Source of the DNA: an uncultured Sutterella sp. | GTDB lineage: Bacteria; Pseudomonadota; Gammaproteobacteria; Burkholderiales; Burkholderiaceae_F | Length of the DNA: 28,108 bases | Reading direction: 5' to 3' | NCBI GenBank assembly: GCA_900538905.1 | Contig: UPZS01000029.1 | Span: 1 to 28,108, forward strand | Shown here: in pieces, positions 1-3,593 of the stretch | How the letters are laid out: each line of letters starts with the position of its first letter | Numbering within the stretch: the stretch's first letter is position 1 | Position numbers and translations under genes: made by a program | The notes under the pieces: model-generated | The model's database searches: none | What the model saw: the letters and a program-made list of their open reading frames with translations, nothing else | What the model was told of the DNA's origin: nothing

Positions 1-255
1 TTCGGTACTTAGGGCACCATACCACATGGTATGCATGTCTGGTAAACACAATTCCTATTAAAAACTAATTCCAGCATCGACACATATTATCATTTTTCGA
101 ACCGCTATTCCTCCCGCGGCTAAGCCGCGGATTTCCTCGCGGATTTCTATGACGGCATCAATCCTTATAAGAATTTCCTCCGCGACTAGTGCCGCTTCTT
201 CTTTTTCGCCAACCGTATTTGTTGCAAATAGAAACATCTTTCTCTATCTAACTTG
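1..255. other. Non-coding leader region with small inverted repeats
   Basis: I see no convincing gene in this stretch. It holds two short perfect inverted repeats. CATACCA (18-24) and TGGTATG (27-33) are separated by 2 bases. CCGCGGC (114-120) and GCCGCGG (124-130) are separated by TAA. A 10-base direct repeat, CGCGGATTTC, occurs at 126-135 and 138-147. The GC-rich hairpin at 114-130 is not followed by a T run on either strand, so it is not a standard terminator. The upstream gene lies outside the window, so these could belong to its 3' region or to an operator. Confidence 0.4.
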
Positions 256-284
256 TTGAGAATGATTCTTATTTGCGATATAGT
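256..284 (+). promoter_or_regulatory. sigma70-like promoter of the candidate small RNA
   Basis: The -35 element TTGAGA (256-261) and the -10 element TATAGT (279-284) are separated by exactly 17 bases. This predicts a transcription start at about A291, the first base of the 5' arm of the folded RNA described next. The match of predicted start and fold boundary is the main reason to trust it. No start codon with a Shine-Dalgarno sequence follows closely. Confidence 0.65.
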
Positions 285-290
285 TCCACC

Positions 291-456
291 AACTGAGAAA
301 CACCTAGAGGCTTAAAGCCGAAGAGACAAGGGTTCGTTGGGGTCGAACCTGCTGCAAGCCTCTCACCAACGTTGTTCTCCTGGCGTTCGTGATGGTTTCT
401 TAGGGTTATCTTCCTTGTGCGGTGACAGGTTTCAGGCTCCTGTCACCGCTTTTTTT
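291..456 (+). ncRNA. Candidate structured small RNA, family not recognised
   Basis: About 166 nt between a good promoter and a perfect intrinsic terminator, with no credible ORF. By eye it folds as follows. P1 is 293-301 with 395-403 (9 bp, one G-U). P2 is 306-313 with 356-363 (AGAGGCTT/AAGCCTCT, 8 bp). P3 is 331-336 with 344-349 (GGTTCG/CGAACC), inside P2. P4 is 364-371 with 384-391 (7 bp with one C-C mismatch). The 3' terminator follows. P1, P2 and P4 form a three-way junction. The P3 loop GGGG (339-342) could pair with CTCC (377-380) in the P4 loop. The unpaired TTCTCC (375-380) and TCTTCC (409-414) are complementary to ribosome-binding sites, as in many trans-acting sRNAs. I could not match it to 6S, 4.5S/SRP, tmRNA, RNase P or any riboswitch I know, and it is shorter than 6S. 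A leader acting on the downstream ATPase gene is an alternative. Confidence 0.6.
419..456 (+). terminator. Intrinsic terminator of the candidate small RNA
   Basis: A perfect 11-bp stem, GCGGTGACAGG (419-429) with CCTGTCACCGC (439-449), has a 9-base loop and is followed by seven T residues (450-456). It is strong and one-directional. It lies 108 bases upstream of the ATPase start, so it ends a separate transcript or attenuates a leader. Confidence 0.85.
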
Positions 457-506
457 CGTTTATTTTCAAGGCTTCTGCAATTTTCGAACGAAAGCAAGAA
501 CGTACT

Positions 507-521
507 CTTGATAAAATCAAG
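507..521. promoter_or_regulatory. Inverted repeat upstream of the ATPase gene
   Basis: CTTGAT (507-512) and ATCAAG (516-521) form a perfect 6-bp inverted repeat with an AAA spacer, 43 bases before the chosen ATPase start. It overlaps a weak promoter-like pair, TTGATA (508-513) and TTTATT (531-536), with 17-base spacing. An operator or autoregulatory site is possible, but the match is short. Confidence 0.3.
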
Positions 522-564
522 ACCATACTCTTTATTTCATTCAATTCCACAAACATCCACGCCT

Positions 565-1788
565 ATGTCTCTCAACTTTACGTACTTGCCTCGAACGCTT
601 GAAACCGTTATCAATCGGGCCAGTCAGCGCTACAAAGGTGTCATGGTGACCGGGATGCGACAGGTCGGCAAAAGCACCATGCTGCGCCGCATGATGGGAG
701 ATCGCCGCTACGTCAATCTCGACCGCTATCAGGCTTTGGATTTGGCTCGACAAGCTCCGGATGCCTTTTTCAAGCAGTATCCGCTACCTTTGCTAATCGA
801 CGAATTTCAGAGAGCCACTGATCTCGGTTTGGAACTCAAGTCCATTCTCGATGAAACCGACGAAAGAGGACTGGTGTGGTTAACAGGCTCCCAAAAACTC
901 GGTCTCAGAAAAGCGGTCGCCGAAGCACTTTCCGGACGCGTTGCATCCTTCGAGCTTCTTCCATTCAGTCTCTACGAGCTGCAAGGAAAAGGCCCGGAGC
1001 AAATACCTTTTGTACCGACCGGTGAACTTACGCGAGGCTCGCTTGCCTCGCTCACGGTGGAAGAACTCTGGAAAATCATCTGGCAAGGCTCATGGCCCGA
1101 AGTGGTTCACGACGAGCCGGATCAACGAGATGCCTTTTTCGACAGTCTTTTGAGAACTTACATCGAAAAAGACATCCTTGCGACAGGAGTACGCCGTGTG
1201 GAGGATTTCGAGCGCTTCTTAAGCGTACTGGCAAACCGCATTGGTCAGGAATTTGCCATCGGCGAAATCCAAAAAGCCGTCGGCATTGCGGCGGAAACTG
1301 CCCGCGATTGGCTTAACGTTGCCGTCGCTACAGGCGTTGTCTATCTCTTGCCTCCTTTCTACGAAAACGTCGGCAAAACACTCATCAAGAAAAGCAAGCT
1401 TTACTTCACCGACACCGGCTTGGCAGCCTGGCTGTGCCAGTCTCCAAGTCCATCGGCTCTGAAAAACGCTTACAACGCCGAAGCGTTTTTCGAGAATTTC
1501 GTCGTCATGGAAATTGTCAAAAGCTGGAAGCACAACGGCAAAAAGCCTCTTTTCTACTTCTACCGCGATACTCGGCAAAATGAGATTGATCTTCTGATTC
1601 GCGAAGGCGACATTTACTATCCGATCGAAATCAAATCGACGGCTTCGCCTCAGCGCAAGATGCTCGACAATTTCGGCGTACTCAAAGGCGACACCATTAA
1701 GCGAGGTCCCGGCGCTCTGATCTGCACTTGCGATGAGCCTCGCTACCTCACAAGCGACGTCGTCGCCCTGCCGGTCTGGGCGCTTTAG
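565..1788 (+). CDS. AAA_14/DUF4143-family ATP-binding protein
   Basis: Predicted 407-aa cytoplasmic P-loop ATPase of the archaeal/bacterial AAA_14 plus DUF4143 type. Walker A is GMRQVGKS at residues 30-37. Walker B is LLIDEFQ at about 76-82, and a sensor-like VWLTGSQ follows near 104-110. The C-terminal half contains NEIDLLI followed by PIEIKS, the D...ExK spacing of the PD-(D/E)xK-like fold seen in DUF4143 proteins. I chose ATG 565 because it gives the family's usual N-terminus. The frame is open upstream to a TTG at 337, but that extension would read through the small RNA and its terminator. No clear Shine-Dalgarno is visible. It stands alone, 41 bases before tamA, and its cellular role is unknown. 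Such genes are often scattered accessory ATPases, sometimes suspected to be defence- or toxin-related, which cannot be shown here. Confidence 0.85.
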   Translation: MSLNFTYLPRTLETVINRASQRYKGVMVTGMRQVGKSTMLRRMMGDRRYVNLDRYQALDLARQAPDAFFKQYPLPLLIDEFQRATDLGLELKSILDETDERGLVWLTGSQKLGLRKAVAEALSGRVASFELLPFSLYELQGKGPEQIPFVPTGELTRGSLASLTVEELWKIIWQGSWPEVVHDEPDQRDAFFDSLLRTYIEKDILATGVRRVEDFERFLSVLANRIGQEFAIGEIQKAVGIAAETARDWLNVAVATGVVYLLPPFYENVGKTLIKKSKLYFTDTGLAAWLCQSPSPSALKNAYNAEAFFENFVVMEIVKSWKHNGKKPLFYFYRDTRQNEIDLLIREGDIYYPIEIKSTASPQRKMLDNFGVLKGDTIKRGPGALICTCDEPRYLTSDVVALPVWAL

Positions 1789-1829: not shown

Positions 1830-3593
1830 TTGGAGCGCTTGACAACCGTTTCCTTTACTTTCGGTACGCATTTGAAGAAACACCTCGTCCTTTGTCTGAC
1901 GCTTTGCCCCCTTGCGCTTTACGCCGCCGACATTTCCATCCATTTCATCGGGCTCAATGATGAACTCGCCGAGAATGTCCGCGCGCACCTGATGCAGCGC
2001 AAAGACGACGACGCCTACTCCGTAAGGAGCCGTCTGGTTTCGGCCGTCAAAGACGGCATCAAACCGTTTGGATACTACCGTCCCCGCGTCAAGATTGATC
2101 TGGTTCGCGCCGACTCGGGCGACGTTACGTCCGTCAATGTCATTGTGGATCCGGGAGAGCGCATTCACCTCACCGAGCCGCACCTCAATCTGCAGGGACC
2201 TCTAACCAAGGAAACCGAATTTGATCTCGCCGTGCAACAGATTCCGAAAGCCGGAAGTCCTCTATTACACAGCGACTACGAGCAATTCAAAGGATCCGTG
2301 CAGGCCCTGGCGTTGGAACTCGGCTATTTTGACGGCAAGTTTTCCAAACACAGCCTCAAGGTTTCGCCCCGCGAAGGCACTGCCTACTGGGACCTCGCAT
2401 ACGACAGCGGCAAGCGCTACAAATTCGGGAAGGTGAACTTTCAGAATTCGCAGATTGACGAAGCCTACCTGCGCTCACTCATTCCGTTTCAAGAGGGGCA
2501 GCCCTACGACTACAACACGTACGGCGACCTTTCGCGCAAGCTCACCGAAACCAACTGGTTCGGGTCGGTAGTCATGTCCATGCAGTTTGACAAGGCAAGA
2601 CTTGATCCCGAGCGTGTGCTTGACGTTGACGTCGCTCTGACGCCGCGCAAAGAAAATCTGGTGGAAACAGGCATCGGGTATGCCACCGACGTCGGTCCGC
2701 ATGGAAAACTTTCTTGGACACGGCCCTGGCTCAACAGCAAAGGTCACAGCCTGACAGCCGCCACCGACCTTTCGCCTGAAGAACAGGAGTTCGAGTTCAA
2801 CTACAAGATTCCCAGCCAATCCAATCCGCTCTCGGACTACTGGGCTTTGCAAAGCGGCTACAAGTACTCAACGCTCAACGACACGACTTCGTCGTCAACG
2901 GCCGTTTCCGCCGCCCGTTTTCAGCTGCTTGACTCAGGCTGGACGCGCAAGATTTCCGTCGACTGGCTCTACGACAACTTCACGCAGGGCAGTGATTCGT
3001 CAAATACGCAAATCATTTATCCCACCCTTTCGTTTTCGCGCACGCGGCAAAAAGGGGGCGTTCTGCCGACCTGGGGCGACACGCAGCGCTATGCGATTTC
3101 GGTTTCCAACACCGCCTGGGGCTCCGACATCGACTTCGTACTGCTCACCGCGCAACAAAGCTGGGTTCGCTCGCTCGGGCCCTCGCACATCTTCATCGGC
3201 CGATGGTCCGCGGGTTGGATCGAGTCGGGAAGCTTTGATCAGGTGCCGCCCGATCTGCGTTTCTTCGTGGGCGGCGACTTGAGCATCCGCGGCTACGACT
3301 ACGAATCCATTTCCCCGAAAAACGACAAGGGCGAACTCGAAGGCGGCTCAAAAATGTACACCGTTTCCGTCGAATACCAATACAACGTTACCGGCAACTG
3401 GTGGGGTGCAGTCTTTTTCGACGCCGGTCAATCGAGTCACGAATTCGATTTCGGCGACATCAAGAAAGGTGCGGGCTTCGGCATTCGCTGGCTTTCTCCC
3501 ATCGGACTCGTCAAGCTCGACCTGGCCAAGGCCGTGGGCGACCCCACGGAGGACAGCTGGAAAATCTACTTCGGTTTGGGAGGCGCGTTGTGA
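1830..3593 (+). CDS. tamA: Outer-membrane translocation and assembly protein TamA
   Basis: Omp85/BamA-family protein of up to 587 aa. It forms the outer-membrane half of the TamA-TamB complex that helps insert autotransporters and other beta-barrels. A signal peptide is visible (KKH, then LVLCLTLCPLALYA, cleaved near AAD), followed by periplasmic POTRA-like repeats to about residue 265 and a 16-strand-type barrel. The barrel contains the conserved RGYDYE segment near residues 487-492, matching the (V/I)RGF/Y lid motif, and the end resembles the C-terminus of known TamA. There is no ATG near the start. TTG 1830 gives a long n-region, and TTG 1872 would give a more typical signal peptide beginning MKKHLV. 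Neither has a clear ribosome-binding site, so the start is uncertain. The stop overlaps the tamB start, so the two are co-translated. Confidence 0.9.
   Translation: MERLTTVSFTFGTHLKKHLVLCLTLCPLALYAADISIHFIGLNDELAENVRAHLMQRKDDDAYSVRSRLVSAVKDGIKPFGYYRPRVKIDLVRADSGDVTSVNVIVDPGERIHLTEPHLNLQGPLTKETEFDLAVQQIPKAGSPLLHSDYEQFKGSVQALALELGYFDGKFSKHSLKVSPREGTAYWDLAYDSGKRYKFGKVNFQNSQIDEAYLRSLIPFQEGQPYDYNTYGDLSRKLTETNWFGSVVMSMQFDKARLDPERVLDVDVALTPRKENLVETGIGYATDVGPHGKLSWTRPWLNSKGHSLTAATDLSPEEQEFEFNYKIPSQSNPLSDYWALQSGYKYSTLNDTTSSSTAVSAARFQLLDSGWTRKISVDWLYDNFTQGSDSSNTQIIYPTLSFSRTRQKGGVLPTWGDTQRYAISVSNTAWGSDIDFVLLTAQQSWVRSLGPSHIFIGRWSAGWIESGSFDQVPPDLRFFVGGDLSIRGYDYESISPKNDKGELEGGSKMYTVSVEYQYNVTGNWWGAVFFDAGQSSHEFDFGDIKKGAGFGIRWLSPIGLVKLDLAKAVGDPTEDSWKIYFGLGGAL

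What the first reader, a model, noticed from the sequence alone, without database searches (positions are those of the whole stretch)
291..456. Undescribed structured small RNA with its own promoter and terminator
A TTGAGA-17-TATAGT promoter predicts a start at 291, the first base of an RNA with four internal helices (293-301/395-403, 306-313/356-363, 331-336/344-349, 364-371/384-391), then an 11-bp terminator with seven Ts. The agreement of start site, fold boundary and terminator is unlikely by chance. Unpaired TTCTCC and TCTTCC stretches look like Shine-Dalgarno-pairing seeds, and a loop-loop contact (339-342 with 377-380) is possible. I recognise no known family.
Basis: partly seen in the sequence, partly recalled or inferred. 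Interest (0 to 1): 0.8.

Follow-up and report, generated by a model that had tools for sequence, protein, structure and literature searches.

The report
Fur-controlled small RNA family in Sutterellaceae
The stretch encodes a conserved, folded small RNA that bacteria related to Sutterella probably switch on when iron is scarce, and it appears to block production of iron-using antioxidant proteins such as rubrerythrin and iron superoxide dismutase.

Summary
The finding is real. Window 288-456 holds a small RNA gene with its own promoter and terminator and a three-way-junction fold. I found 21 relatives in 14 of 67 genomes of the family. Across the 22 copies, 20 of 25 base pairs show changes on both sides and 91% of cells pair. 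No Rfam 15 family matches. All 22 copies carry one, including the 12 first found by models without promoter. Fur and Hfq are encoded in 12 and 13 of the 14 genomes. An exposed UUCUCCU loop and the 3' tail can pair with ribosome-binding sites. Rubrerythrin sites pair better with the own sRNA than background genes do (p 5e-6) and better than with other species' sRNAs (p 0.001). Fe-SOD gives a weaker, mixed signal. Best reading: a new, sequence-unrelated functional analogue of RyhB/PrrF/NrrF/BrrF, repressed by Fur and sparing iron under starvation. Expression, Fur binding and repression are inferred. In the window's nearest relative (G018) both targets rank poorly.

The parts
256..274 (+). Fur-type box TTGAGAATGATTCTTATTT, overlapping the -35 hexamer and the spacer
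   Evidence: Weight matrix from other species' copies scores it 27.0. The next best site in 1.16 Mb of G018 plus the window, after the two sRNA promoters, scores 20.2. A like box precedes all 22 copies.
256..284 (+). sigma-70-type promoter TTGAGA-17-TATAGT
   Evidence: in 13 of 22 copies, the window included, the box ends exactly 13 nt before the modelled start.
288..456 (+). small RNA gene (about 166-169 nt), three-way junction plus terminator; 5' end inferred at 288-291
   Evidence: Fold; homologues and covariation.
288..406 (+). closing helix P1: 288-290/404-406 and 293-301/395-403
   Evidence: A6 helices 1 and 2: 10 of 12 pairs with changes on both sides.
307..362 (+). P2: lower helix 307-313/356-362, upper helix P2b 330-336/344-350, exposed loop UUGGGGU 337-343
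   Evidence: P2b: 5 of 7 pairs with changes on both sides (one further pair fails in 13 of 22), visible in the unfitted MAFFT alignments too. A GGGG 7-mer is exposed in 19 of 22 copies (not both G015 copies or G058). The lower helix was seen only in single folds, not counted.
363..392 (+). P3 hairpin with exposed anti-Shine-Dalgarno loop UUCUCCU (375-381)
   Evidence: 5 of 6 pairs with changes on both sides, with gaps in 5-6 rows. A UCUCC 7-mer is exposed in the P3 loop in 18 of 22 copies, in the tail in 3, and nowhere in one G055 copy.
403..417 (+). single-stranded 3' tail GGGUUAUCUUCCUUG, second seed region
   Evidence: Accessible; in relatives it pairs with sodB and rubrerythrin ribosome-binding sites.
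419..456 (+). intrinsic terminator, 11-bp stem 419-429/439-449 and T7
   Evidence: A strong hairpin follows all 22 copies, with a T-rich stretch in 21; one G054 copy has only 2 T in 9.

Best explanation
This is a trans-acting, Fur-repressed small RNA. With iron present, Fe-Fur sits on the box in the promoter and keeps it off. When iron is scarce it is transcribed and ends at its own terminator, whose U-run would suit Hfq. Its exposed UUCUCCU loop and its 3' tail pair with the ribosome-binding sites of mRNAs for iron-containing antioxidant proteins (rubrerythrin, Fe superoxide dismutase, possibly others), block translation and so spare iron. Shown by sequence comparison: the RNA family, the fold, the Fur-type box in every copy, the Fur and Hfq genes, and species-matched complementarity at rubrerythrin. 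Inferred: transcription, Fur binding, Hfq use, repression, and the targets in the window's own species.
For: Fold and covariation. Fur-type box upstream of 22 of 22 copies. A matrix trained on the 9 copies seen first scores the other 13 at 14.6-32.0; in 5051 random 60-mers the 99.9th percentile is 9.7 and the largest 18.9. All 8 new places that a model found at E 0.003 or lower have it. The next best box in G018 lies just before an anaerobic heme-use gene, ChuW/HutW (TIGR04107 above cut-off). Fur in 12 of 14 genomes, Hfq in 13 of 14. Rubrerythrin against own sRNA, 11 genes vs 258 background: p 5e-6; vs 35 strong-SD genes: p 1e-4; without the two that prompted the test: p 7e-5 and 8e-4 (correcting). 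Matched vs swapped sRNA, tail plus loop: p 0.0012 (11), 0.0028 (10). In a G017 sample sodB ranks 1 of 300 and rubrerythrin 1 of the 299 called genes, which lack sodB; in a G053 sample sodB ranks 4 of 293. sodB with tail, matched vs swapped: p 0.0003 (14), 0.0046 (12). The C-terminal domain of G018 SodB is closest to Fe-SODs.
Against: No expression data. The sodB tail was chosen after seeing the scan; tail plus loop for sodB is not significant (p 0.16 with 14, 0.31 with 12), nor is the loop alone (p 0.57, 0.66). sodB vs strong-SD genes is only p 0.026 (14), 0.088 (12). The test noted beforehand for rubrerythrin, tails only, gave p 0.073 (11) and 0.17 (10). In G018, nearest to the window, sodB ranks 334 of 955 and rubrerythrin 161 of 954. 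Iron-protein enrichment in G018 is weak: Mann-Whitney p 0.027 for 24 of 935 genes picked by motif, Fisher tests not significant. Weak hits in G015, G055, G053 and one G054 copy were accepted partly because of the box, and one G055 copy first surfaced through its box, so for those the box is not independent. The box was also part of the query of the first BLAST.
Confidence: 0.8

Rival explanations
1. A Fur-regulated sRNA, but with other main targets (for example molybdopterin/Fe-S oxidoreductases in the G018-window lineage), the rubrerythrin and sodB pairing being a by-product of strong Shine-Dalgarno sites meeting an anti-SD loop.
For: In the G018 sample the top-scored gene is a Mo/Fe4S4 oxidoreductase (second), and the tail segment that pairs with it is shared with the window. 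The loop is plain anti-SD.
Against: Rubrerythrin beats strong-SD genes (p 1e-4) and prefers its own species' sRNA (tail plus loop). In G053 its site UUGAGACCCCCGA is not SD-like yet matches that species' tail.
Confidence: 0.3
2. An sRNA that acts mainly by binding a protein or a metabolite, since it is rigidly folded and has invariant GGGG and near-invariant CUCC loops that could form a fixed tertiary contact.
For: Compact three-way junction, GGGG in all copies, complementary loops.
Against: Free-standing with its own terminator; tail and loop fit the own species' rubrerythrin sites best.
Confidence: 0.1
3. A 5' leader or attenuator of the downstream gene (in the window an AAA_14/DUF4143 ATPase).
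For: Its end lies 108 bp before the presumed ATPase start codon (565) on the same strand; a DUF4143 protein also follows one G015 copy.
Against: The downstream gene differs between most copies, while the divergent upstream neighbour queA is shared by 7 genomes. A terminator-like hairpin ends every copy.
Confidence: 0.03
4. A small protein gene or a chance fold.
For: Short frames of more than 15 codons occur in 9 of 22 copies.
Against: No frame is shared beyond the near-identical G053/G055 pair; covariation.
Confidence: 0.01

Closest known systems
BrrF of Burkholderia cenocepacia (same order; passages of PMC7377471 seen)
   Same: Iron-starvation sRNA under a Fur-controlled promoter, with predicted targets including sodB and Fe-S enzymes.
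   Different: By those passages BrrF is 126 nt, is cut from the hemP transcript, ends at a U-run without a stem and always lies downstream of hemP. Here: own promoter and terminator, different fold. Model R3 gave no accepted hit beyond genomes already known in 399 genomes of the order (limited sensitivity).
RyhB / PrrF / NrrF (Rfam families, details recalled)
   Same: Fur-repressed, iron-sparing, sodB among targets; PrrF occurs as tandem copies, as here in G002, G013 and G054.
   Different: No match to these families in Rfam scans to E 10 for window 1-1000 or E 5 for 16 relative loci.
IsrR of Staphylococcus aureus and FsrA of Bacillus (passages of PMC11257911 seen; the rest recalled)
   Same: Iron-regulated sRNA; IsrR has three C-rich regions that can pair with ribosome-binding sites.
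   Different: Different hosts and no Rfam relation; here the seeds are a UUCUCCU hairpin loop and a GGGGU-led tail around a three-way junction.

Membership tests
Fur-regulated iron-sparing sRNAs (functional class) | Fur box in the sRNA promoter | tested here: met
   22 of 22 copies by sequence; Fur binding itself not testable here.
Fur-regulated iron-sparing sRNAs (functional class) | Fur protein in the genome | tested here: met
   12 of 14 sRNA-bearing genomes; none found in G002 and G014, both of which have many contigs.
Fur-regulated iron-sparing sRNAs (functional class) | Pairs with mRNAs of iron proteins | tested here: inconclusive
   Strong for rubrerythrin across species, mixed for sodB, poor in G018.
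Fur-regulated iron-sparing sRNAs (functional class) | Induced by iron starvation | not testable with these tools
   No expression data.
RyhB, PrrF, NrrF (Rfam families) | Match to the family covariance model | tested here: not met
   No match at gathering or lenient thresholds.
BrrF | Located downstream of hemP and processed from its mRNA | tested here: not met
   Own Fur-type promoter; the upstream neighbour is a divergent queA in 7 genomes. The gene left of the window's copy lies outside the window.
6S RNA and other known structured RNAs | Rfam match | tested here: not met
   The only overlap in relatives was a sub-threshold CcsR1 match at the 3' end of the G016 copy (24.3 bits, cut-off 65.3, E 0.094).

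The most novel reading that the evidence does not exclude
A new RNA family that evolved independently of RyhB, PrrF, NrrF and BrrF in Sutterellaceae and relatives. Its preferred targets are rubrerythrin and Fe-SOD, the oxidative defence of oxygen-sensitive bacteria, and its loop and tail coevolve with the targets' ribosome-binding sites from species to species.
Probability: 0.6. Interest if true: 0.65.

Novelty: new member of a known kind. Interest (0 to 1): 0.56.

Why it matters
Sutterella and its relatives are common gut bacteria (recalled), and the listings seen here showed no described iron-responsive sRNA for them. If right, this gives them a RyhB-like regulator, a ready covariance model for annotation, and a clear case of sRNA-target coevolution at rubrerythrin, a defence protein of oxygen-sensitive bacteria.

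Tried and rejected
Rfam at gathering and lenient thresholds found nothing credible. The E. coli Fur consensus with up to 3 mismatches gave no match in the window; the box is recognised through the family's own matrix. A plasmid search gave nothing. Unbiased target ranking in G018 with Pfam scans of 20 of the top 30 genes gave 3 iron-linked proteins (Mo/Fe4S4 twice, a NUBPL/Mrp-type Fe-S carrier). I drew a control set of 30 genes but never named it, so no enrichment is claimed. Motif-labelled iron genes gave only a weak shift (p 0.027 for 24; subsets from 0.0025 to 0.67). Order-wide search with R1 and R3 (399 genomes, 8-9 candidates scored per genome) gave one extra weak hit, G296, rejected for lack of a box and terminator. 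Ten weak hits in all were rejected, largely because they lack a box. Controls for species matching: sodB with the P3 loop, and the fur (11 of 12 loci) and fumarase (7) genes with tail and loop, gave p 0.4-0.75; several fur starts were mis-called, so those serve only as arbitrary sequence. A first tail test used wrong tails for two copies (p 0.0017 and 0.0097) and was redone. One search failed in its script. My trimming cut three G054 copies short of their tails; one search repeats the background tests with full lengths (sodB p 0.0016 became 0.0009, rubrerythrin 6e-6 became 5e-6). The first sodB background test missed 3 of 14 genes (p 0.002). Rubrerythrin: 24 loci were fetched and 11 first-type genes tested. 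Left out: G054 and G058 (found only inside long frames), G055 (no match), one G021 locus where no start was found, further paralogues of G015 and G021, and the adjacent second genes of G014 and G016, for which the script returned the first gene's start again. Six second-type genes were scored apart: -11.6 (G019), -9.8 (G002), -6.4, -6.2, -5.2, -1.8 (G018).

Full report
Observation. The fold is more stable than 200 of 200 shuffles (z -3.48). The promoter alone is at chance level (1 found, 1.0 expected).

Surroundings. No whole genome is held for the window. Downstream are an AAA_14/DUF4143 ATPase (565-1788) and TamA (1830-3593), then TamB, AlaS and others. A scan with TamA reached Sutterella massiliensis (G001) and a Sutterellaceae MAG, S34M_St_31 (G002).

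Relatives. BLAST of window 246-456, promoter included, over 67 genomes of G002's family gave full-length or promoter-anchored relatives in G018 (82% identity), G013, G002, G015 and G017. Four further matches had looked like a box only; one of them (G055) later proved a true copy. A covariance model without promoter and terminator (R1) added G019, G014, G016, G020, G021 and G054. R2 and R3 added G058, further copies in G054, and G055 and G053. In all there are 21 copies in 14 of 67 genomes, plus the window. R3, built from 18 of them, recovers all 22 at local E 0.015 or lower. Copies lie in tandem a few hundred bases apart in G002, G013 and G054 (two pairs), about 1.9 kb apart in G015 and about 3 kb apart in G055. 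G001, a named Sutterella, gave no credible match. In 399 genomes of the order no accepted match lay outside the genomes already found, with only 8-9 candidates scored per genome.

Structure. On the 22-row model-fitted alignment, 91.2% of cells pair, 20 of 25 pairs have changes on both sides, and none of 500 shuffles or six slides comes near; one P2b pair fails in 13 of 22, and P3 has gaps in 5-6 rows. The fitted alignment favours the structure. A plain MAFFT alignment of 7 copies gives the same sign: 89.1% paired, 11 of 25 pairs, 0 of 500 on four of five measures and 43 of 500 on the fifth; RNAalifold on the first MAFFT alignment of 9 kept only P2b. No reading frame is shared beyond the near-identical G053/G055 pair. 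GGGG on the P2b loop is exposed in 19 of 22 copies; UCUCC is exposed in the P3 loop in 18, in the tail in 3, nowhere in one G055 copy. A hairpin follows all 22 copies, with a T-rich stretch in 21.

Fur control. Between -35 and -10 lies TTGAGAATGATTCTTATTT; many relatives read TTGCGAATGATTCTCATTT. With a matrix from the first 9 copies the other 13 score 14.6-32.0; random 60-mers reach 10 in 0.1% of cases, the largest being 18.9; 10 rejected hits reach at most 7.9. For weak hits (G015, G055, G053, one G054 copy) the box itself helped acceptance, and the rejected hits were rejected largely for lacking it. For the 8 new places at E 0.003 or lower the model score stood alone, and all 8 have the box. 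In 1.16 Mb of G018 the best box other than the sRNA promoter precedes a ChuW/HutW heme-use gene. Below a score of about 15 the counts are at the level of random sequence. Fur is found in 12 of 14 sRNA genomes, Hfq in 13 of 14.

Context. A queA-like gene is the divergent upstream neighbour in 7 of the 14 genomes (the G013 protein named). tamA follows in the window (after the ATPase) and in G002. G014, G017 and G019 share a downstream gene; otherwise the downstream gene is not conserved, so a leader role is unlikely.

Targets. In mechanical scoring (duplex energy plus opening costs, start -35 to +20) sodB of 14 of 14 genomes scored better than 258 background genes (p 0.0009; 0.007 with 12 after removing near-duplicates) but only marginally better than 35 strong-SD genes (p 0.026; 0.088). 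Species-matched tails fit sodB better than swapped ones (p 0.0003 with 14, 0.0046 with 12), but the tail was picked after seeing the scan, the loop alone shows no preference, nor does tail plus loop (p 0.16 and 0.31). Samples of mechanically called genes ranked sodB 1 of 300 in G017 (about 0.37 of 2.5 Mb) and 4 of 293 in G053 (0.4 of 3.0 Mb), but 334 of 955 in G018. In the G017 sample the best called gene is a rubrerythrin with the same CAGGAGAAUACCG site. This led to a test on rubrerythrin noted beforehand for tails. Tail alone gave p 0.073; loop alone 0.0027; tail plus loop 0.0012 (11 genomes) and 0.0028 (10). Against background the p value is 5e-6, and 7e-5 without the prompting pair. Six of 11 rank within the top 10 of 259; the others are 21st, 43rd, 50th, 76th and 100th. 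In G053 the site is UUGAGACCCCCGA, not SD-like, and matches that species' GGGGUCUC tail. In G018 rubrerythrin ranks 161 of 954, and the top candidate there is a Mo/Fe4S4 oxidoreductase. The window's own targets could not be tested.

Literature. I saw passages of PMC7377471 (BrrF) and PMC11257911 (IsrR). In the main texts of PMC11109978 and PMC8632094 term searches for Sutterella, Burkholderia and ferric uptake found nothing. Searches for Sutterella/Sutterellaceae sRNAs or regulatory RNAs and rubrerythrin with small RNA showed no report of this RNA in the listings; many papers matched by count and only the listed ones were looked at, in a library lacking most subscription journals.

Verdict. 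A real sRNA family, not in Rfam 15, under a Fur-type promoter: a new member of the functional class of iron-sparing sRNAs. Confidence: RNA family about 0.97, Fur control about 0.93, rubrerythrin/SodB targeting about 0.7 for the family and lower for the window's own species.

Noticed in passing
G018 C12, G020 C15, G017 C2, G021 C13: sRNA, rubrerythrin, sodB and (except G021) fur lie on one contig within roughly 20-55 kb of each other, so the regulator and its predicted targets may share a conserved neighbourhood.
   Followed up: partly
L062:1084-1960: One tandem pair of copies in G054 lies directly downstream of an rRNA operon (5S at 1084-1198).
   Followed up: no
L059:1501-1624: The G016 copy has two UUUCUCCUG stretches, one in the junction before P3 and one in the P3 loop.
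   Followed up: no
window 565-1788; L052:1895-3046: An AAA_14/DUF4143 ATPase follows the sRNA both in the window and after one G015 copy.
   Followed up: partly
window 110-150: GC-rich inverted repeats (CCGCGG...CCGCGG) upstream of the promoter, perhaps the terminator of a gene beyond the window's left end.
   Followed up: no
L260 and L262 (G019, G017): The second rubrerythrin, with an N-terminal rubredoxin-like stretch, of G019 also has a site matching the sRNA tail (UAGGAGAAUACCCA); that of G017 differs by a U-to-C change within the match.
   Followed up: partly
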